From: Solirubrobacterales bacterium | Lineage (GTDB): Bacteria; Actinomycetota; Thermoleophilia; Solirubrobacterales; Solirubrobacteraceae | Direction: 5' to 3' | Assembly: GCA_027315255.1 (NCBI GenBank) | Contig: DAHUYL010000196.1 | Location: forward strand, 1 to 54,741 | DNA: 54,741 nt | Shown: positions 4,793 through 53,100 of the stretch, piece after piece | Layout of the letters: each line of letters begins with the position of its first letter | How positions within the stretch are numbered: the stretch's first letter is position 1 | Made by a program: the position numbers and the translations under genes | The notes under the pieces: model-generated | What the model saw: the letters and a program-made list of their open reading frames with translations, nothing else | What the model was told of the DNA's origin: nothing | Database searches by the model: none

Positions 4793-5158
4793 TCAGGGCA
4801 GAGCTGTTATCCGGTTGCGCAGCGCCGCGTCGTCGGGATGGGTGAGCAGCAGCGATTCGAGCGCGCCGACCCAGGCGGTCAGGTTCGCGCGGGCGCGTGG
4901 CAGCGTCGCGTCGAACGTGAACACGAGCCCGTAGTGCTCGCCCCCTTGGGCCAGCAGTCGGTCGTGGATCACGCGGAAGTCGGCGACGTCGTTGGTCACC
5001 ATCGCTCGCTGCTCGCTCGCCATCCGTGCCACGAGCTCCTGATCGGACAGGCCTTCGAGCTCGGGCCGGTCGCGCTTGATCGCCTCGACATAGTGACCGC
5101 GTGCGCGCAGCTCGCGCGCGACCTGAGGCGAGATCATCTCGTCGAGCAGCAGCTTCAC
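4793..5158 (-). CDS. PIN-like DUF5615 toxin
   Basis: A protein of 121 residues. It opens with KLLLDEMISPQVARELRARG, the typical start of the DUF5615/Mut7-C-like PIN fold, with the acidic pair at residues 6-7. It continues with GLSDQELVARMASEQRAMVT followed by NDVADF, which supplies further conserved Asp residues. Family members are the toxin partners of DUF433 antitoxins and are presumed ribonucleases. The ATG overlaps the antitoxin stop by four bases. The active-site residues look intact. Confidence 0.8.
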   Translation of the reverse strand: MKLLLDEMISPQVARELRARGHYVEAIKRDRPELEGLSDQELVARMASEQRAMVTNDVADFRVIHDRLLAQGGEHYGLVFTFDATLPRARANLTAWVGALESLLLTHPDDAALRNRITALP

Positions 5159-5574
5159 CGAAGCGCTGCGCGGCGTCGGTCAAGCGCGTCGCGCTCGCGG
5201 GCTGCGGCAGCGTCGGAGCGCGCGATCCACGCGTCGATCTCCTGCGGGTAGTCGGCGTAGTAGGCGAGCGCCGCCTCGACATGCTCGAGCGGGATCTCGA
5301 GGTAGCCGGCGGACTGCTCGAGCGAGTTGCCGTTCTGGCGGATCGTGGTGATCACGTCCGCGACTGACAGCCGTGATCCGAGCAGCACCGCTCGGCGTCC
5401 GGCGGCGCCGTCGCGGAAGCTGATCAGCGGATGCTCGTCCTGGCGAAGCCCCTCGGCGATGTAGCGCTCGGCAAGCTCGGTCTGAGCGGTGCGCGTCTCG
5501 CGTGCGCGACGGCGCAGGTGCTCGACCAGGTCGGGGTCGAACCGGAACGCCACGCTCTGCTTCGATCGATCCAT
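5155..5574 (-). CDS. DUF433 antitoxin with ribbon-helix-helix N-terminus
   Basis: A protein of 139 residues. Residues 1-45 (SVAFRFDPDLVEHLRRRARE and following) look like a ribbon-helix-helix DNA-binding domain. Residues about 50-115 (LLGSRLSVADVITTIRQNGN, then LEIPLEHVEAALAYYADYP) match DUF433, the usual partner of DUF5615 toxins. The charged C-terminal helix probably contacts the toxin. Its start lies one base after the stop of the upstream gene (TGA-G-ATG), and its end overlaps the toxin start, so the three genes form one operon. Confidence 0.82.
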   Translation of the reverse strand: MDRSKQSVAFRFDPDLVEHLRRRARETRTAQTELAERYIAEGLRQDEHPLISFRDGAAGRRAVLLGSRLSVADVITTIRQNGNSLEQSAGYLEIPLEHVEAALAYYADYPQEIDAWIARSDAAAARERDALDRRRAALR

Positions 5575-7537: not shown

Positions 7538-8050
7538 TCAGGTGCGCAGCCCGCGCGGTGGCGGTGGGGGTGAGAGCACGCGGACGGGTTCAGACGCGAC
7601 GGTCAGTCGCGGCAGGCCGGCTGCGAACACGCACAGGCAGCGGGCACGGGTGCGGGCGGCTGAGCTGTACACGATCGCGTGTGCGCCTTCGGCCGCGAGC
7701 CGCTCGCCGACTGCCTGGAACGACGGCCACTGCAGGCTGGTTTGCCGCAAGCGCGGTAGGCCGAGCGCTCGGCGGGCGGTCTCAGCGGTCAGGTCCACGA
7801 CTCGCTCGAGGTCGACGCTGACGTGGTGCAGATCGCGTGGGAAAACGTCGCCTGGCGCGATCCGTCGCTCGGCGAGGCCTCGGTAGAGCTCGGCCCACGC
7901 CGTCTGCTCGTTGTCGGCGAGGTAGACGGCCGGCGTTCCGGCGCGCTGCCACCTTGCGTCATACGTGATCGCCTCGTCGGCCGCGATCTGCGGACGGGTC
8001 TGTCTGACCCAGATGCCGGCTACGGGCACCCAGGCCGGATCGCGTGGCAT
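7538..8050 (-). CDS. RES-domain toxin (module 2)
   Basis: A protein of 170 residues. The segment AGTPAVYLADNEQTAWAELY is a clear RES core, followed by PRDLHHVSVDLERVVDLTAE and WPSFQAVGERLAAEGAHAIV, the usual order in RES toxins. It starts four bases after the stop of the upstream antitoxin-like gene. Sequence and length differ clearly from module 1, so this is a separate lineage and not a recent copy. It is the last gene of a four-gene minus-strand operon beginning near 9162. Activity on NAD+ is inferred from the family. Confidence 0.8.
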   Translation of the reverse strand: MPRDPAWVPVAGIWVRQTRPQIAADEAITYDARWQRAGTPAVYLADNEQTAWAELYRGLAERRIAPGDVFPRDLHHVSVDLERVVDLTAETARRALGLPRLRQTSLQWPSFQAVGERLAAEGAHAIVYSSAARTRARCLCVFAAGLPRLTVASEPVRVLSPPPPPRGLRT

Positions 8051-19445: not shown

Positions 19446-22226
19446 CTATTGCTCGCGGGCGGCGGCGACGACGGTGGGTGGGAGCAGCTGTACGCGTGTG
19501 AGTGCGAGCTCGCGGGAGCCGGTGAGCCGTTCGCGCAACGCGGGTGGGTGGGGTGGGAGCGCGAGCGCGTCGAGGTGCTGGTGGTGGATGTCTGTCTCTT
19601 GCGCGAAGAAGAGGTGGTCGCGGCCGGCGTAGTACCAGTGCTCGGCGGGGGTGCTCATCACGCCGATCCTGCCGGTCATCGCCTCGTCGGCGGCCCGGGC
19701 GAGAGCGAGCATGGTGTGCGGGTCGCGGCAGGCGAACACGACGGTGGGGCGGGTTTGTTGTTCGCGGTAGCGGGGGTGCGCGAGCGCCCAGCCGCAAAGG
19801 AACGCGTCGTAGGCGAGGAACTTGTCGTGGTTGTAGGAGGGGCGGTTGGTGAGGTCGAGCTCGACGAGCAGGTCGAAGGTCAGCTTGATCGTCTCGATCC
19901 GCAGCTCGAGTGAGAGGTCGGGCTTGATCTCAGTGAACGTCTTCTGCTGGACGTCGATGATCGCGTGGCCGTCGGGAACGGGAATCTCGTTGATCTGCAG
20001 CGGGTGGCGGCGCTGCCCGCTGCCGGTTTGGGGGACGGGGTAGCGGCCGGTGGCGTAGCGGGCGGTGCGCCAGCGGTCGGTCGCGAGCTTGCCGACCGCA
20101 CGGTGCAAAGCGATCGCCCAGCCGGCGGCGTGCAGGTCGTGCGCGAGCCTGGCGGCGCGTGACTGGTCGAGCTCGCGCCACTCGCGGCGGGGTGAGATCA
20201 CGGGCGCTGGCTGGCGTTGCTGGCCGGTTTCGAGCCCGCGTTTCGTGATCGCGTACAGCAGGGGTGGTTTGCCGTCCTCGCGGGTGTGTTCGCGCAGCCC
20301 GGTTTGGTAGCGGGCGATCAGCCCGTGGCGGTAGAGCTTCACCAGCCGATCGGACATGGTGCGGGCCGCGCGGTCGGGTTGGACGGCGCGGCGGATCAGG
20401 GTGGCGGGTGCGAGGCCGATCCGGTCGAGCAGCATCAGCACGGCGTGGTCCTCGTCGTAGAGGCGGGGGAGCTCTCGGGCGCCGGGGAGCGTGTCGGGCT
20501 TGCCGATCTCGTTGACCCGGTCCATGAACGCCAGCTCCCGCAGACTCTCGGGCGCCGGCGCATCCTCGTTTCGCTCGCGGTCGCTGGTGGTGGGGCGCCC
20601 GACGATCCTGCGCACCGGGCTTGTGGCGATCGCTGGTTTGCGGTCTGGTCGTTCGATCTCGACCCTGACCTCCCGTCGCTCGCTCGCCGGCGCGCGGTCA
20701 GCGGCCTTTGGTTCGCCGGCAGGACCTGTGCTGTCGGCGGAACGGCGCTGTGCACGCGGCTTACGCGCAGCCACCTCAGGCTCGGCCCCATTTCGCTGGA
20801 CGTCGCCTGCATCGCTCCCGCTGCTTCGAGCTGGACGCTGGTCGAGGGTGGAGGCGAGCTGATCGGGGTAGGGGTCGACGCGTTCGGCGAGCGCGGCGAG
20901 ATGCTGCCGCGCCCACACGTCCGAGTGCGGTGGCCAGGGGTAGGTGGCGCCGATGAAGCTGGGGATCCGGGTGCCGCCGGCGATCCACGAGGCGAGGCAG
21001 TGGAAGTTGGGGAAGTTGAGCGCCTGCTCGGGGGTGACGCGCAATCTCGCGCGGGAGTCGGGGTCGTCGCGGATCATCGTCGAGTAGACGGCCATCGCGA
21101 TCCTGGTTGCTTCCTCGGCGTCGCGGGGGTCGCCCATCCGGAACAGGAGCCGGCTCTGCAGCAGGTTGATGACCCCCTTGCGGATCTTCTCCTCATGCTG
21201 TGAGCCGGACCCGAGCTGCGCGAAGTACTGAAGGCCGAGTGAGACCTCCAGGCCGGCGGCGCGGTGGGTCGCGATCTGGTCGACGAAGTTCTCGGTGCCG
21301 GCGAGGTAGTGCGCCTCATCGACGATCAAGGGAACGCGTGGCCGGTCGGTCTCGGGCAGGCGGACTTGGCGTTGGAGTTGGGTGTGGAGCATGCGCAGAA
21401 TGAAGTGCATGCACGCGCGGCTGTTCTCGGTCCCGATCGCGCCCATGTTCGCGTCGACGATCAGGATGTCGCGCGCCTGGATGATCTCGGAGATGGGCAC
21501 GTCGGTCGGATGGTTGAAGAACCGCCTGAGCGGCGGGACGCCGGTCAGTCCGGAGATCTTGTTGCGCGGCGCGTCCAACCGCTGCGCGACGGAGCTGGTC
21601 GCGATCTGAAGATCGTCGGGCAGCTCTGAGCGGAAGAACTCGGCGGTCTGATCAAGGTCGGCCTGATCGGCGCACGCCTCCGCCGCGGCTTGGCGGAAGT
21701 CGTCCTTCTTGGGGCGAAGCAGCGTGTACACGTCCTCGAGCCGGGGGCGGCGCCCGTGGCGGTTTGAGAGCGCGAGCGCGCCGATCACCGCGTGATACAG
21801 GTAGCGGCGTGAGGACTGAAAGATCTGGTTCTCGTTGATGTCCAGCAGCGCGGCGACGATGTTCTCAGCGACCGCCGCCGCCTCGACCGCCAACGCCCCC
21901 TCACCCCGCCGACGCAACGGACTCATCCCAAACGCCGGACGCCCCAGGTCGAGAAACCAGACGCGCTTGCCGCAATCAGGGGGGGTGAGCGCGAGGCACA
22001 GGCGCGAGAGCTCGCTCTTGGGATCGATCACGATCGGCGCCGCGTGCTGGTCACGGATGTCGTTCAAGTACATCCGCAAGAGCGCGGCGCTCTTGCCGCT
22101 GCCCATGCTCCCGACGAGCAGCGCTCCGTATTTGCGGTCGTCCGGGTGGATCAGTACCTCCGCGTTGTCCGCTCTGAGCGTCGGCAGCACCCGGTAGCCC
22201 AGCGGCGGGTGCGCGAGCGCGCTCAC
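19446..22226 (-). CDS. VirD4/TraG-like ATPase fused to a replication-relaxation domain
   Basis: A protein of 926 residues. Residues about 30-420 are a conjugative coupling-protein/AAA-like ATPase: Walker A GSMGSGKS (39-46), VIDPKSELSRLCL (65-79) and Walker B PLIVDEAH (299-306). Residues about 420-590 are a charged linker. Residues about 590-900 match the replication-relaxation family: a winged helix (MLLDRIGLAPATLIRRAVQP ...), then the nuclease-like part IKPDLSLELRIETI...VELDLTNRPSYNHDKFLAYD. The GTG start overlaps the stop of the membrane-protein gene by four bases (GTGA). It probably couples DNA processing with transport through a type IV-like channel; this role is inferred. Fusion of the two domains is notable. 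Confidence 0.8.
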   Translation of the reverse strand: MSALAHPPLGYRVLPTLRADNAEVLIHPDDRKYGALLVGSMGSGKSAALLRMYLNDIRDQHAAPIVIDPKSELSRLCLALTPPDCGKRVWFLDLGRPAFGMSPLRRRGEGALAVEAAAVAENIVAALLDINENQIFQSSRRYLYHAVIGALALSNRHGRRPRLEDVYTLLRPKKDDFRQAAAEACADQADLDQTAEFFRSELPDDLQIATSSVAQRLDAPRNKISGLTGVPPLRRFFNHPTDVPISEIIQARDILIVDANMGAIGTENSRACMHFILRMLHTQLQRQVRLPETDRPRVPLIVDEAHYLAGTENFVDQIATHRAAGLEVSLGLQYFAQLGSGSQHEEKIRKGVINLLQSRLLFRMGDPRDAEEATRIAMAVYSTMIRDDPDSRARLRVTPEQALNFPNFHCLASWIAGGTRIPSFIGATYPWPPHSDVWARQHLAALAERVDPYPDQLASTLDQRPARSSGSDAGDVQRNGAEPEVAARKPRAQRRSADSTGPAGEPKAADRAPASERREVRVEIERPDRKPAIATSPVRRIVGRPTTSDRERNEDAPAPESLRELAFMDRVNEIGKPDTLPGARELPRLYDEDHAVLMLLDRIGLAPATLIRRAVQPDRAARTMSDRLVKLYRHGLIARYQTGLREHTREDGKPPLLYAITKRGLETGQQRQPAPVISPRREWRELDQSRAARLAHDLHAAGWAIALHRAVGKLATDRWRTARYATGRYPVPQTGSGQRRHPLQINEIPVPDGHAIIDVQQKTFTEIKPDLSLELRIETIKLTFDLLVELDLTNRPSYNHDKFLAYDAFLCGWALAHPRYREQQTRPTVVFACRDPHTMLALARAADEAMTGRIGVMSTPAEHWYYAGRDHLFFAQETDIHHQHLDALALPPHPPALRERLTGSRELALTRVQLLPPTVVAAAREQ

Positions 22227-23656
22227 CGACGATCCGCCGCGGAAGCCGGCGCCTTCGCGACCTCGGCTGCTGGGGGTGTCGCGATCGTCGCGTTGTCGGT
22301 CGCGCGCATCACCTGCGGCGGCGCCGGGATCCTCGGCACAGTCATCCGCCTGACCGGAACGCCCTTCATCCGCGCGGACGGGAGCGCGAGCAGATGCGCC
22401 ACCTCCGCCGCGGACACAAGCGCCCGCGGCGAGGGGATCAGCGGCCTCACCGCCGACGGGAACCTGCGGCGCTGGGCCCCGGTCGTACCGACGATCCGCC
22501 GCAGCCGGTTCTCACCGCGCCGGGCTTGCACGGCGGCGCCGATCTGCCTGCACGTCGCCTGGTCGTCGGCGGCGACGGACGCCTCGAGCCAGAACATGCT
22601 GCGGTTCTGCGCGCGTCCGGCGCTTGCCATCTCGACCCGGTCAAGCGTCGACAGTGGCTGCCCGGGACGGGCACCGAGGTGCCGGGCGCCGACGAGATGC
22701 CGCTCGTGGCGGCGGTAGCGGCCGCGCGCGAGCCCGTCGAAGAACAGCGGCGTCGGGGTCAGCTGAAACCGCACGACCGACGGGCCGCCCGCGCTGATCT
22801 GTGCCAGCGCGATCTGCTCGATCGGCGGCGAGGCCAACAGCTCCTCGGCTGCCAACAACGGATACACGAAGCTCCGCTCCTTCCGAAACCGCAACAGCAC
22901 CGCCGGCGTGCGCAACCGTCCAGCCCGCGGCCGCGGCGGCTGGCCGTGCGCCCGACCCAACCTCACGTCCGGATACGCCGCCGCCAGCGCCCCATCCAAC
23001 GCCGCGACGCTGGCCGGCTGGCAGCGGACGTTCAGCGACCACTCCATCTCGGTCTGTGTTGCCTTCTCGGTCGTGTCGTCGAGTTGGTCGCAGATCAGCT
23101 CAAACGCGAACGACGGCTGCCCGCGCCAGATCCGTTCGACCGGCCAGGCGCGCACGACGTTCGCGATCGCCTCGACCATGTCCTCGAGATCCTGCGGCTT
23201 GGCGTGATCGTGAGTCGACAGATGCAGCTCATACAGCGCGTAGCGGCGATCAGCTCGCAGCCACAAACCACGCGCCAGCAGCCCAACAACCCCCGCCAGT
23301 GTGGTCGCGGCCAGCCCGGCGAGCACCTCGAGCGCGACCATCAACCGCCCCAGCCGCCGCGCGAGCGACGGCCGTCGGCTAGCAGCACCGCGACTCGCGG
23401 ACCGTCGCCGCCTACGCACAGCGCGGTGGCTATCAGGGCGGCGCGGCCTCGGAGAGCGACCCTGTTCGGCCTGGGCGCCGGGACGGGTCGTCAGCGATGG
23501 TGGGTGGGCGGCGACCTCGAGAATCAGCAAGCCGCCCGCGAGGACCGCACAGATCGCCACGACGCCAAGCGCCAGACGCACCTCAACACCAGAAAAGCGT
23601 CTCGTGGGGTCGTCGATCCGGCGAAACAGCAGTAGCCCGATCGACCACGGCGTCAC
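22223..23656 (-). CDS. membrane protein paired with the TraG fusion
   Basis: A protein of 477 residues. It has two membrane spans near the N-terminus (VRLALGVVAICAVLAGGLLI at about 27-46, and LEVLAGLAATTLAGVVGLLA at about 109-128) separated by an Arg-rich loop. The rest is a large soluble domain, including ELHLSTHDHAKPQDLEDMVE and RMKGVPVRRMTV. This resembles the membrane partner encoded beside VirD4-like ATPases in actinobacterial mobile elements. The GTG start is the first of the frame. The four-base overlap with the ATPase gene argues for a complex. No sequence-level family is claimed. Confidence 0.6.
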   Translation of the reverse strand: MTPWSIGLLLFRRIDDPTRRFSGVEVRLALGVVAICAVLAGGLLILEVAAHPPSLTTRPGAQAEQGRSPRPRRPDSHRAVRRRRRSASRGAASRRPSLARRLGRLMVALEVLAGLAATTLAGVVGLLARGLWLRADRRYALYELHLSTHDHAKPQDLEDMVEAIANVVRAWPVERIWRGQPSFAFELICDQLDDTTEKATQTEMEWSLNVRCQPASVAALDGALAAAYPDVRLGRAHGQPPRPRAGRLRTPAVLLRFRKERSFVYPLLAAEELLASPPIEQIALAQISAGGPSVVRFQLTPTPLFFDGLARGRYRRHERHLVGARHLGARPGQPLSTLDRVEMASAGRAQNRSMFWLEASVAADDQATCRQIGAAVQARRGENRLRRIVGTTGAQRRRFPSAVRPLIPSPRALVSAAEVAHLLALPSARMKGVPVRRMTVPRIPAPPQVMRATDNATIATPPAAEVAKAPASAADRR

Positions 23657-23859: not shown

Positions 23860-25932
23860 GTGGCGATCTCGACGGCAAGCTTCACCGCGACCGCTCGTGA
23901 GCGGCTGCGAACGCTGACGGCGGCCGCGGATGCCGAGTTTCGCCCCGGTCAGCTCGACGCGATTCGCGATCTCGTGCTCGACCGCGCCCGCGTGCTGTGC
24001 GTGCAGCGCACGGGCTGGGGCAAATCGGCCGTGTATTTCGTGGCGAGCGCGATGCTGCGCGAGGAAGGGTCAGGCCCGACGCTGATCATCAGCCCGCTGC
24101 TGGCACTGATGCGCGACCAGATCGCCGCCGCGAAGCGACTCGGGCTCAAAGCCCACACCGTCAACTCGACCAACCACGACGAATGGGACCACGTTGAGGC
24201 CGAGCTTGCCGACAACGCGTTGGACCTGCTGCTGATCAGCCCCGAGCGGCTGAACAATCCGCTGTTCGCTGAGCGGATGCTGCCGCTGTTCGCGTCGGCG
24301 ACAGGGTTGCTGGTGATCGATGAGGCGCACTGCATCTCTGATTGGGGTCACGATTTCCGCCCCGATTACCGCCGCGTCCGCCAGGTGCTCAGCGCGCTCG
24401 CTCCGGATGCTGCCGTGCTCGGCACGACCGCGACCGCGAACGACCGGGTCGTCGAGGATGTGCTCGAGCAGCTCGGCGGCCGGACGGAGCCGATGCGGAT
24501 CTACCGTGGAGCGTTGGCGCGTGAAAGCCTGCGGCTCGAGGTCGTTGAGCTGCCGCGCGCGGCTGAGCGGCTGGCGTGGCTGGTCGAGCATCTCCCGACG
24601 TTCGCGGGGTCCGGGATCGTCTACACGCTGACCAAGCGCGACGCCGATCAGCTCGCCGCGTTCCTCACCGCCCACGGGATCGCCGCGGTCAGCTACACCG
24701 GCGAGCAGGACAGCCAGGAGCGCGTCGCGACCGAACAGCGCCTGCGCAGCAACGCGGTGAAGGCGGTTGTGGCCACGAGCGCGCTGGGAATGGGGTACGA
24801 CAAACCAGATCTGACGTTCGTCGTTCACTACCAGGCGCCCGGGTCGGTGATCGCCTACTACCAGCAGGTCGGTCGCGCCGGCCGCGCGGTCAAGCACGCC
24901 GATGTCGTGCTGTTGCGCGGCGAGGAGGACCGCCGCATCCAGGACTTCTTCATCGAGCAGGCGTTCCCCTCGCGCGAGCGGACCATGGCTGTGCTCGACG
25001 AGCTCGAGCAGGCCGGGGAGATCGGGCGCACGACCCGTGAGCTGATGGCCGTGGTCAACCTCGGCATCAGCCGCATCGAGGCGATGCTGAAGATCCTCGA
25101 TGTCGAAGGCGCTGTGCGCCGCGACGGCACCCGCTGGCAGCGAATCTCGGGGTCGAGCTGGGTCTATGACGCCGAGCGCTACCAGCAGGTGACCGAACTA
25201 CGCCGCCGCGAGCAGCAAGCGATGGCAGCCTACGGAGCCGACGGACGCTGCCTCATGCGCGCTCTGCAAGAGGAGCTGGATGACCCCAACGCCGGCGATT
25301 GCGGCCGCTGCTCGGTATGCACCAGCCCACGGTTTCAGCGTCGGCCGGACCCGGCGCTGGTCGAGGAGGCCTGGCGGTATCTGCGCTCCCGACCGGTCGA
25401 GATCGAAGTCAAGAAGATGGCGCCTGACCCGAGCACCGGCCAGATGCGCAAGATCCCCGACCATGTCCGCACCGACCCCGGGCTCGCGCTCGCGCGGTTC
25501 GGCGACGGCGGCTGGTGGCCCGCGATCCAGCGATCACTCGCCGCCGGCCACTTCGACCCAGAAATCGTCAGCGCACTCGCCGAACTCGCAACCCCACACG
25601 CACCAGCCTGGCTCACCTACATACCATCAACCACGATCACCGAAGCGCTCACCGCGCTCGCCCACGACCTCGCCGCGGCGCTCGAGATCCCTTGCCTCGC
25701 GCTGATCGCCCGCCTCCAACCGCGACCACCGCAACGCGAAATGAGCAACGCCGTCCAACAGGTAGCCAACGTCCGCGGCGCCTTCACCCTCACAAGCAGA
25801 CCACCGTCAGGCACCGGGCTCCTGCTCGACGACCGCCGCCACTCCGGCTGGACGCTCGCGATGGTCGGCGGACAACTCCGCAACGCCGGCGCTACCCGCA
25901 TCATCCCGATCGCGCTCGCCACCATCGGCTAA
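23860..25932 (+). CDS. recQ: RecQ-family ATP-dependent DNA helicase
   Basis: A protein of 690 residues from GTG. Motif 0 (FRPGQLDAIRDLVLDRARVL), Walker A TGWGKSA (51-57), DEAHCISDWGHDFRPDYR (154-171, with the RecQ aromatic loop), GTTATAN, QVGRAGRAVK (motif VI) and the four-Cys zinc site (RCLMRAL...DCGRCSVC) are all present in order. The C-terminal region beyond the zinc domain is about 200 residues of winged-helix and unassigned sequence. 3'-5' unwinding in repair or restart is known for the family. It is divergent from the TraG pair, with about 200 bases between. Near 25930 the codons become more A/C-rich at third positions. Confidence 0.93.
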   Translation: MAISTASFTATARERLRTLTAAADAEFRPGQLDAIRDLVLDRARVLCVQRTGWGKSAVYFVASAMLREEGSGPTLIISPLLALMRDQIAAAKRLGLKAHTVNSTNHDEWDHVEAELADNALDLLLISPERLNNPLFAERMLPLFASATGLLVIDEAHCISDWGHDFRPDYRRVRQVLSALAPDAAVLGTTATANDRVVEDVLEQLGGRTEPMRIYRGALARESLRLEVVELPRAAERLAWLVEHLPTFAGSGIVYTLTKRDADQLAAFLTAHGIAAVSYTGEQDSQERVATEQRLRSNAVKAVVATSALGMGYDKPDLTFVVHYQAPGSVIAYYQQVGRAGRAVKHADVVLLRGEEDRRIQDFFIEQAFPSRERTMAVLDELEQAGEIGRTTRELMAVVNLGISRIEAMLKILDVEGAVRRDGTRWQRISGSSWVYDAERYQQVTELRRREQQAMAAYGADGRCLMRALQEELDDPNAGDCGRCSVCTSPRFQRRPDPALVEEAWRYLRSRPVEIEVKKMAPDPSTGQMRKIPDHVRTDPGLALARFGDGGWWPAIQRSLAAGHFDPEIVSALAELATPHAPAWLTYIPSTTITEALTALAHDLAAALEIPCLALIARLQPRPPQREMSNAVQQVANVRGAFTLTSRPPSGTGLLLDDRRHSGWTLAMVGGQLRNAGATRIIPIALATIG

Positions 25933-37876: not shown

Positions 37877-38173
37877 CTATGCGAGGTGGTCGGCGGGGAG
37901 TTGCACGCCGTCCCAGAACGCTTGCGCGTTGTAGGTCGTGTGCGTGGGCTTGTCGTTGGTGGCTTCGGAGTTGATCAGCGCTTGGAAGTCGTGGCGGCGG
38001 ATGCGGACCCGGCGTCCGACGCGCAGCGCGGGCAGCGATCCGTCGGCGATCCAGTTGCGGACCGTTTGCTCGTTGAGCTTGAGGATCTTTGCGACTTCGG
38101 CGACGGTCAGAAAGTCGTCGATCGCGGCGAGATCACGACTGGACACCCCGAGTTCCGTCGGCGTTTGGCTCAA
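37877..38173 (-). CDS. excisionase-like HTH_17 protein
   Basis: A protein of 98 residues. DFLTVAEVAKILKLNEQTVR followed by NWIADGSLPALRVGRRVRIR is a full MerR/excisionase-type helix-turn-helix and wing. The C-terminal 30 residues are unassigned. Its ATG overlaps the stop of the secreted-protein gene by four bases. A DNA-binding protein in the middle of an operon of secreted proteins is odd. It may regulate the operon or act in excision or recombination. Confidence 0.8.
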   Translation of the reverse strand: MSQTPTELGVSSRDLAAIDDFLTVAEVAKILKLNEQTVRNWIADGSLPALRVGRRVRIRRHDFQALINSEATNDKPTHTTYNAQAFWDGVQLPADHLA

Positions 38174-44261: not shown

Positions 44262-44522
44262 GTGGGTGTAGGACGCCAAGGCGCGTCGGACTTCCTCAGC
44301 ATCGAGGAGGTCGCGACCCGTCTGAACGTCTCCGGGGAGACGATCCGCCGCTGGGTACGCGAAGGGCGGTTGCAAGGCACCCGCGTCGGGCGCCAATGGC
44401 GGATCTACCCGCACGACCTCGAACGGTTCCTCACCCGCGCCGGCCGCCCCGACGCCAGCAACGCCAGCATCTGGGAGCCCAACAACCGCTCGCTCGTCAG
44501 CGACGATCAACAACAGTCCTGA
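44262..44522 (+). CDS. second excisionase-like HTH protein, divergent from the operon
   Basis: A protein of 86 residues. DFLSIEEVATRLNVSGETIR followed by RWVREGRLQGTRVGRQWRIY is again a HTH_17/excisionase-type fold, related to but distinct from the protein at 37877. The C-terminal end is polar. The 47-base gap to the divergent operon start suggests shared regulation. It is cotranscribed with the next gene (one base between stop and ATG). Confidence 0.78.
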   Translation: MGVGRQGASDFLSIEEVATRLNVSGETIRRWVREGRLQGTRVGRQWRIYPHDLERFLTRAGRPDASNASIWEPNNRSLVSDDQQQS

Positions 44523-52392: not shown

Positions 52393-53100
52393 TCAACTGC
52401 GAGGTGCGATTCGCGGGTCCGCAGGGATCATCGGCGCGGGGCGCTCGTGGACGGCGGCGATGATCTCGGTGTTGTCGATCCCGCGCAAATATCGGGACGT
52501 GATCGCCAGGTCGGCATGCCCGAGTTGGCGCTGGATCACGAGCAGCGAGATCCCTTCACGCGACATCTCGACCGCGTGCGCATGCCTGAGCTGGTGCGGC
52601 GCGAACCGGCGCCGGACACCGGCCATCTCGGCTGTCTGGTGCAACTGGGCGCGGATCCCTGCTGATGCGCACGCCCGTCCTCTTGTTGGACCGCGGACGA
52701 TGCAGAACAGCCGGCCGACGGGGAGCTCCTTCCTGAGCTCCAGCCAGGGTGCAAGGTGCGCCCAGGCCCACCTGTCCATTCCGACCTCGCGGCGCTTGTC
52801 GCCCTTGCCGTGACGGACAAGCAGCGAGCCGCGGTCGGGGTCGAGGTCGGTCTCGTTGAGCGCGAGCGCTTCGCTGATCCGTAGGCCGGCGCGCCACAGC
52901 ACGACGATGATGCCGCGCAACCGTACGCCGTCGGGACGCTCGCCCGTGGCACGCATGACCGCGATGATCTCCTCGACGGTCGGCGGGTCCGGTGGGTACC
53001 GCAGACCCTTGTTGCGAGGCGGCAGCGCTTGGTGGAAGCTGGACGCTGTCGCCGGCGACCGACGTCGTCCGGCGCAATCCAGCAGCGAGTTGGACTCCAT
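52393..53100 (-). CDS. tyrosine recombinase/integrase
   Basis: A protein of 235 residues, ATG preceded by AAAGGAGG. The catalytic set is R74 (RAGLRISEALAL), K99 (GKGDKRREV), H169 and R172 (HQLRHAHAVEM), H195 (LGHADLAITSRYL) and Y204. The N-terminal SAM-like DNA-binding domain is short compared with XerD (about 300 residues). Such short forms are found on mobile elements. It stands just outside the inverted repeat and may mobilise the element, or act as a dimer-resolution enzyme. No attachment site is recognised. Confidence 0.88.
   Translation of the reverse strand: MESNSLLDCAGRRRSPATASSFHQALPPRNKGLRYPPDPPTVEEIIAVMRATGERPDGVRLRGIIVVLWRAGLRISEALALNETDLDPDRGSLLVRHGKGDKRREVGMDRWAWAHLAPWLELRKELPVGRLFCIVRGPTRGRACASAGIRAQLHQTAEMAGVRRRFAPHQLRHAHAVEMSREGISLLVIQRQLGHADLAITSRYLRGIDNTEIIAAVHERPAPMIPADPRIAPRS

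What the first reader, a model, noticed from the sequence alone, without database searches (positions are those of the whole stretch)
19446..23656. VirD4/TraG ATPase fused to a replication-relaxation domain
One 926-residue protein joins a coupling-protein-like ATPase (GSMGSGKS, IVDEAH) to a winged-helix plus nuclease-like replication-relaxation domain. It is coupled by a GTGA overlap to a two-span membrane protein. Relaxation and coupling in one chain would let the same molecule nick or open DNA and feed it to the channel.
Basis: partly seen in the sequence, partly recalled or inferred. Interest (0 to 1): 0.6.

Follow-up and report, generated by a model that had tools for sequence, protein, structure and literature searches.

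The report
DNA pump fused to relaxase domain
One soil-bacterium protein joins the motor that feeds DNA into a conjugation channel to a domain of the kind that nicks the DNA to be sent, two jobs normally done by separate proteins, which suggests that in this lineage the nicking enzyme stays at the channel instead of travelling with the DNA.

Summary
Window 19446-22226(-) is an intact 926-aa ORF with a TrwB/VirD4-like ATPase (Walker A and B present) and a C-terminal Replic_Relax domain (PF13814), joined by a GTGA overlap to a 477-aa two-span membrane protein. It is not an assembly accident: ATPase and relaxase-type domain share one ORF in 17 of 35 stretches examined, from 17 Solirubrobacterales genomes; in 11 of these the membrane protein is in the same chain too. 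PF13814 is the domain of MOBC relaxases (CloDF13 MobC, whose coupling protein MobB is itself needed for relaxation). The modelled domain has a MarR-like winged helix plus a strand order and motif placement that fit PD-(D/E)XK; the active-site set is complete in the window and in 12 of 17 fused copies. The membrane partner folds like the VirB4 N-terminal domain. In Solirubrobacter soli and G063 the pair ends an operon with VirB6-, PrgI- and VirB4-like genes; in the window those are absent and a PsyrT-like helicase lies upstream. Best reading: a membrane-anchored coupling protein with a built-in MOBC-type relaxase. Nicking is untested; the window copy is either a mobilisation module that borrows a channel or a stranded remnant.

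The parts
19446..22226 (-). 926-aa fusion: TrwB/VirD4-like coupling ATPase + linker + Replic_Relax (MOBC-type) domain
22089..22112 (-). Walker A GSMGSGKS
   Evidence: sequence
21309..21329 (-). Walker B LIVDEAH
   Evidence: sequence
20202..20468 (-). MarR-like winged helix of the relaxase-type domain (model residues 7-95)
   Evidence: AF2 model pLDDT 92; VIA-align Z about 11 over 76-82 residues to MarR-family chains
19659..20156 (-). PD-(D/E)XK-like half (model residues 111-276)
   Evidence: DSSP order; motif columns
19917..19922 (-). PD dipeptide of the presumed active site
   Evidence: P in 29 of 29 and D in 25 of 29 rows
19854..19862 (-). E-L-D motif of the presumed active site
   Evidence: E in 27 of 29, D or E in 28 of 29 rows
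19821..19823 (-). lysine in the following helix
   Evidence: K in 23 of 29, R in 4 of 29 rows
22223..22226 (-). GTGA start/stop overlap that couples the two genes
   Evidence: sequence
22223..23656 (-). 477-aa membrane partner: two spans + VirB4-N-terminal-domain-like cytosolic domain
22337..23263 (-). VirB4-NTD-like domain (residues 132-440)
   Evidence: VIA-align Z 13.6, 253 aligned, 4.7 A, to TrwK/VirB4 7o42_E residues 35-432

Best explanation
The two genes encode one membrane machine: a type IV coupling protein (two spans and a VirB4-N-domain-like base in the 477-aa subunit; TrwB-like ATPase at the start of the 926-aa subunit) with a MOBC-type relaxase domain fused to the C-terminus of the ATPase. 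Proposed working: the winged helix binds the origin of transfer, the PD-(D/E)XK-like half nicks one strand, and the attached ATPase ring, held at the channel entrance by the membrane subunit, takes up the strand without a separate relaxosome-to-coupling-protein hand-over. Shown: gene structure, fusion, family membership, conserved motifs, predicted folds, operon with VirB6/PrgI/VirB4-like genes in the closest relatives. Inferred: nicking, oriT binding, hexamer formation, docking, DNA export. In the window itself the channel genes are not next to the pair, so this copy would need a channel in trans, as CloDF13 does.
For: Both domains over Pfam cut-off in one ORF, likewise in S. soli and in L035. 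Fusion in 17 of 35 stretches, with M in the same chain in 11. ATPase profile against PDB sequences: only TrwB, E 1.3e-7. PF13814 equals MOBC in a published table (PMC5357655, passage); a CloDF13-type plasmid typed MOBC has mobB and mobC overlapping, its MobC hits PF13814 at 1.2e-21 and aligns to the RR profile with PD on PD and E on E (hhalign E 2.6e-4); MobB aligns to the ATPase profile (E 6.1e-6). Desulfosporosinus plasmid pDESACI.01 has membrane+ATPase and RR as two adjacent genes. A standalone RR gene lies next to an ATPase gene in 7 of 20 phylum-sample loci. VirB4-like gene beside the fusion in 7 of 17 fused loci (L007, L032, L035, L088, L089, L090; L034). MobB of CloDF13 acts both in relaxation and as coupling protein (PMC7431656, passage).
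Against: No VirB4- or VirB6-like gene beside the window pair, and the S. soli VirB4 finds nothing in the window genome (genome 92% complete, 231 contigs, no positive control in that call). 5 of 17 fused copies have an altered active site. The nuclease fold rests on strand order; the PDB searches are filled by the winged helix, with only a weak FokI row (E 0.018). The same fold occurs in Bacillus phage proteins, where conjugation is not expected, so PF13814 alone does not prove a relaxase. The hhalign probability to MobC is only 42%. The ATPase profile also aligns to VirB4 (E 4e-4), so coupling-protein identity rests on relative scores. No oriT was identified.
Confidence: 0.62

Rival explanations
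1. The RR domain is a DNA-binding adaptor only: the winged helix recognises the transfer origin and recruits it to the pump, while nicking is done by another enzyme or not at all (dsDNA pumping).
For: 5 of 17 fused copies have altered catalytic positions, L045 and L091 badly so, while invariant columns outside the motif persist. MOBC relaxases show no covalent intermediate (PMC12857230, passage).
Against: The full D, E, D/E, K set is kept in 22 of 29 rows and 12 of 17 fused rows including the window. No other relaxase was found among the 10 S. soli proteins scanned.
Confidence: 0.2
2. In the window the pair has been turned into a defence system: a membrane-anchored DNA translocase with a nuclease.
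For: The divergent neighbour 23860-25932 is PsyrT-like (PADLOC 774 bits over nearly the whole model), and the fusion weakly hits mad8 (32.6 bits). No channel genes beside the pair. S. soli has PLD-nuclease and SNF2-helicase genes with PADLOC hits downstream.
Against: Nearest relatives (62% identity) sit in VirB6/PrgI/VirB4 operons. Defence genes are common cargo of mobile elements (general knowledge). The mad8 match is weak and covers the ATPase part.
Confidence: 0.1
3. The window copy is a stranded remnant of a conjugative element, no longer used. This concerns the window copy only and can be true together with the best explanation for the family.
For: Operon genes upstream of the 477-aa gene are replaced by RecQ/PsyrT within 204 bp; the one integrase domain found among the window proteins scanned, 235 aa, lies 30 kb away.
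Against: The ORF is intact and dN/dS to relatives is 0.29-0.40; these values average over both lineages and cannot date a recent loss.
Confidence: 0.3

Closest known systems
CloDF13 MobB-MobC (MOBC relaxase with its own coupling protein)
   Same: VirD4-type ATPase gene directly followed by a PF13814 gene with overlapping stop/start; the coupling protein takes part in relaxation; the plasmid borrows a channel.
   Different: Two proteins in CloDF13-type plasmids, one chain here; MobB shows no similarity to the 477-aa subunit; the candidate lysine sits 6 residues after the first E in MobC and 13 after it here (own count).
Desulfosporosinus acidiphilus pDESACI.01 FtsK-annotated protein + replication-relaxation protein
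   Same: Same membrane domain and ATPase in one 1046-aa chain (hhalign 2.2e-15 and 3.5e-37), RR gene 8 nt downstream.
   Different: RR is a separate gene.
TrwB/VirD4 coupling proteins (R388)
   Same: ATPase sequence profile and Pfam TrwB_AAD_bind.
   Different: Membrane base resembles the VirB4 N-domain, is a separate protein in the window, and a relaxase-type domain is fused at the C-terminus.
pAD1 TraX (MOBC, restriction-endonuclease-like relaxase)
   Same: Winged helix plus PD-(D/E)XK-type catalytic part (from review passages in PMC12857230).
   Different: TraX itself was not compared here; the primary paper was not held.

Membership tests
MOBC relaxase | PF13814 (Replic_Relax) domain | tested here: met
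   40.1 bits against cut-off 25.3; PF13814 = MobC in PMC5357655 Table 1
MOBC relaxase | N-terminal winged helix | tested here: met
MOBC relaxase | PD-(D/E)XK-type active-site residues | tested here: met
   window has PD, E, D, K; complete in 22 of 29 rows, 12 of 17 fused
MOBC relaxase | restriction-endonuclease fold of the catalytic half | tested here: inconclusive
   strand/helix order and motif placement fit; structural searches filled by the winged helix
MOBC relaxase | site- and strand-specific nicking at oriT | not testable with these tools
   needs biochemistry
VirD4/TrwB coupling protein | Walker A and B in a TrwB-like ATPase | tested here: met
   NCBIfam VirD4-like CD1115 31.3 and SXT TraD 28.6 bits against VirB4-like 19.6, all below the curated cut-offs
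VirD4/TrwB coupling protein | N-terminal membrane domain in the same chain | tested here: not met
   in the window it is the separate 477-aa protein; same chain in 11 of 17 fused loci
complete conjugative element | VirB4 ATPase next to the module | tested here: not met
   none in the window; present in 7 of 17 fused loci
TrsD (orphan MPF-FATA protein with remote VirB4-N-terminal homology) | sequence similarity to pGO1 TrsD | tested here: inconclusive
   hhalign of the membrane-protein profile against TrsD E 0.57; structures not compared
MADS defence (mad8) | mad8 match and mad gene neighbours | tested here: inconclusive
   weak match 32.6 bits; mad neighbours were not looked for beyond the proteins

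The most novel reading that the evidence does not exclude
A conjugation machine whose relaxase is a built-in, non-exported part of the coupling protein: it nicks DNA at the channel mouth and stays in the donor, so DNA leaves without a covalent pilot protein. Together with the membrane base in the same chain in 11 of 17 loci, it would be an all-in-one dock, pump and nickase, and would explain why MOBC relaxases show no covalent DNA intermediate.
Probability: 0.3. Interest if true: 0.8.

Novelty: new variant of a known kind. Interest (0 to 1): 0.6.

Why it matters
Relaxases are thought to ride with the DNA into the recipient. For MOBC relaxases no covalent intermediate has been seen, and a recent review leaves open how their DNA is recruited, transferred and religated (PMC12857230, passages). 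A natural chain in which a MOBC-type relaxase domain is welded to the coupling ATPase, and often to the membrane, says the two act in contact and suggests that the enzyme stays behind. That is directly testable, since a protein so anchored should not appear in recipients. It also gives a VirB4-N-domain-like membrane protein a probable role as the base of a coupling protein.

Tried and rejected
Rejected: assembly or gene-calling artefact (fused in 17 of 35 stretches from 17 genomes). Chance ORF (GC3 0.88; over Pfam cut-offs). Generic unknown membrane partner (VirB4-NTD-like).

Led nowhere: the full-length protein in the genome search failed twice. Plasmid and phage tblastn of the fusion gave 1 plasmid and 0 phage records. 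The L041 RR in plasmids gave 0. Repeat search beside the pair gave nothing that I could call an oriT. Promoter and terminator scans were at the level of shuffles. No tRNA in the window. TrsD sequence comparison negative. The A3 profile found no PDB sequence and no match in S. soli VirB4. (PF13814 across the phylum) did not ring for the window's own locus at its E limit, so it cannot show that the fusion is absent elsewhere; one search is the better control. The alignment searches scored only a few candidates per genome, so their counts are lower bounds; G058, G067 and G100, positive, are not among the matches listed.

Rows dropped: L028 and L029 (short contigs) and the duplicate genome-search loci were not given; L044, L073, L074 and L026 were left out of alignment A2 although they carry RR matches. 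Start codons of the homologues were chosen by eye.

Full report
What is there. The two ORFs are as described: 22223-23656(-), 477 aa, and 19446-22226(-), 926 aa, overlapping by GTGA. Pfam finds TrwB_AAD_bind (42.6 bits) and Replic_Relax (40.1 bits) in the 926-aa protein, both over cut-off, and no family over cut-off in the 477-aa protein. The window is a whole contig (C91) of a 4.3-Mb, 231-contig genome, 92% complete. Its closest named relative by this protein is Solirubrobacter soli, 62% identical.

Is the fusion conserved? HMMs for the membrane part (M), ATPase and RR were run on the six-frame ORFs of 35 stretches (33 chosen for an RR match or as the window, 2 own-genome stretches chosen for VirB4-type ATPase hits). 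ATPase and RR lie in one ORF in 17 of 35, each from a different genome. In 11 of the 17, M is in the same ORF as well (one of these, L033, is cut by its contig end). In 6 (window, L007, L032, L035, L089, L090) M is a separate upstream gene. In 3 further stretches (L041, L063, L071) the ATPase and RR genes are adjacent but separate. In a tree of 29 RR domains the six split copies and two ATPase-less copies (L036, L082) fall on one side of a branch with support 100/99; the tree is unrooted, so the order of fusion and splitting is not settled. RR matches were found in 16 of 101 genomes of the order, 28 of 299 of the class and 9 of 396 of the phylum; outside the class only G568 was strong, and none of those matches lay in a frame over 707 aa. 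A PF13814 survey found matches in 48 of 396 genomes with no frame over 725 aa, but that run did not ring for the window's own locus, so it is weak evidence of absence.

What the relaxase-type domain is. PF13814 is the domain of MOBC relaxases in a published table (PMC5357655, passages). A CloDF13-type plasmid typed MOBC by PLSDB has a coupling-protein gene overlapping mobC; that MobC hits PF13814 at 1.2e-21 and aligns to our RR profile over the winged helix and the PD...E region (hhalign E 2.6e-4, probability 42%). MobB aligns with the ATPase profile (E 6.1e-6). The RR model (pLDDT 92) is a winged helix (residues 11-89) followed by helix 111-134, strand 135-140, strands 191-197 and 202-211, helix 216-233 and strand 248-253. 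PD (189-190) comes just before the strand at 191, E209 and D211 end the strand 202-211, and K222 is in the next helix; that is the order expected of a PD-(D/E)XK enzyme with its lysine moved to the helix (expectation recalled, not from a call). Winged-helix matches fill the PDB lists, so the nuclease fold itself is not confirmed by search. Tally over 29 rows: P 29, D 25, E 27, D or E 28, K 23 with R in 4; the full set is present in 22 of 29 and in 12 of 17 fused rows. The five altered fused copies are L034, L045, L088, L091 and L093.

What the membrane partner is. Its model (pLDDT 76) has two spans and a cytosolic alpha/beta domain. All 13 Foldseek PDB matches at E 0.001 or better are chains of R388 T4SS entries, among them the TrwK/VirB4 entries 7o42 and 7o43; the next row is at 0.042. 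VIA-align gives Z 13.6 over 253 residues at 4.7 A to TrwK residues 35-432, with ESX-3 chains next at 8.8. So it looks like a VirB4 N-terminal domain on a membrane anchor. Sequence comparison with TrsD of pGO1, an orphan protein said to share remote homology with the VirB4 N-terminus (PMC12102498, passages), was negative.

Context. In S. soli the order is HTH, TrbL/VirB6-like, PrgI-like, VirB4 (TraG P-loop 52.6 bits), MinD/ParA-like, SpoIIM-like, M, fusion, from VirB6 on with overlapping genes; the TrbL, PrgI, ParA and SpoIIM matches are below the Pfam cut-offs. G063 has the same order. A VirB4-like gene is found beside 7 of 17 fused loci. In the window it is missing: 204 bp upstream of M, divergently, lies a 690-aa RecQ-like helicase that is a near-full-length PsyrT match. 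S. soli VirB4 found nothing in the window genome, but contig C220 carries a VirB4-like ORF and a VirD4-like ORF (the VirD4 label is my reading of its sequence), so a channel could exist in trans. The fusion evolves under constraint (dN 0.31 with dS 0.77 to L007 and 1.06 to L032).

Unfused counterparts. Desulfosporosinus plasmid pDESACI.01 encodes M and ATPase in a 1046-aa protein annotated FtsK, and 8 nt later a replication-relaxation protein; PLSDB types its mating-pair system MPF_T but the plasmid as non-mobilizable. In 7 of 20 phylum-sample PF13814 loci, with about 1.5 kb of flank, an ATPase of this profile is encoded next to the RR gene. A conserved pair of neighbours that is fused in one lineage is the classical sign of partners that act together.

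Mechanism and its weak points. The best-supported account is a coupling protein with a built-in MOBC-type relaxase. CloDF13 MobB already has a dual role as accessory relaxation protein and coupling protein (PMC7431656, passage), and MOBC relaxases show no covalent DNA intermediate, which leaves open how their DNA is recruited, transferred and religated (PMC12857230, passages). A fusion that is also membrane-bound could hardly travel to the recipient. What is not shown: nicking, oriT, transfer, and that the chain is not processed. The fold is also found in Bacillus phage proteins, so the domain has uses outside conjugation.

Novelty. No report of a coupling protein fused to a relaxase was seen in the listings of paper searches and 115 of an open-access library; subscription papers are not covered. 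Passages only, not whole papers, were read of PMC5357655, PMC11104534, PMC12857230, PMC5365140, PMC7431656, PMC11389934, PMC12102498 and PMC6868719. I class it as a new variant of a known kind.

Noticed in passing
window 23860-25932(+): 690-aa RecQ-like helicase that matches the PADLOC PsyrT model at 774 bits over nearly its whole length, divergent from the fusion operon.
   Followed up: partly
L088:3976-7302 (G268): A second membrane+ATPase protein without the RR domain, with Walker A and B both lost, upstream of an intact three-part protein: perhaps a dead partner subunit.
   Followed up: partly
L036:964-3066 and L082:127-2247: RR domains with a long N-terminal extension and no ATPase; L036 starts with a membrane-like stretch.
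   Followed up: no
L045:12422-15670 (G048): Three-part fusion whose RR active site is lost (PD to PA, E to T, no K) while the Walker motifs remain.
   Followed up: partly
L007:12734-18839 (S. soli): PLD-type nuclease and SNF2-type helicase genes with defence-model hits (ZacB, PDC-M27C, DrmD) directly downstream of the fusion operon.
   Followed up: partly
window 4793-5574(-), 7538-8050(-): DUF5615/PIN-like plus DUF433/BrnA-like pair and a RES-domain gene, toxin-antitoxin-like.
   Followed up: no
window 52393-53100(-), 37877-38173(-), 44262-44522(+): Integrase catalytic domain of 235 aa and excisionase-like HTH genes on the same contig, 15-30 kb from the pair (37877-38173 judged from its sequence only).
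   Followed up: no
L040, L041 (L043, L046 by similarity): Unfused RR genes lie next to tyrosine integrase genes, as in integrative elements (Pfam tested for L040 and L041).
   Followed up: partly
L037, L039, L045, L091-L093: Three-part fusions of this group share a downstream gene for a further TrwB/HerA-like ATPase (Pfam tested for L037 and L091) instead of an upstream S. soli-type VirB4.
   Followed up: partly
L050 (CloDF13 record NC_002119): The reference CloDF13 record reads mobC in broken frames; PLSDB types it non-mobilizable.
   Followed up: no
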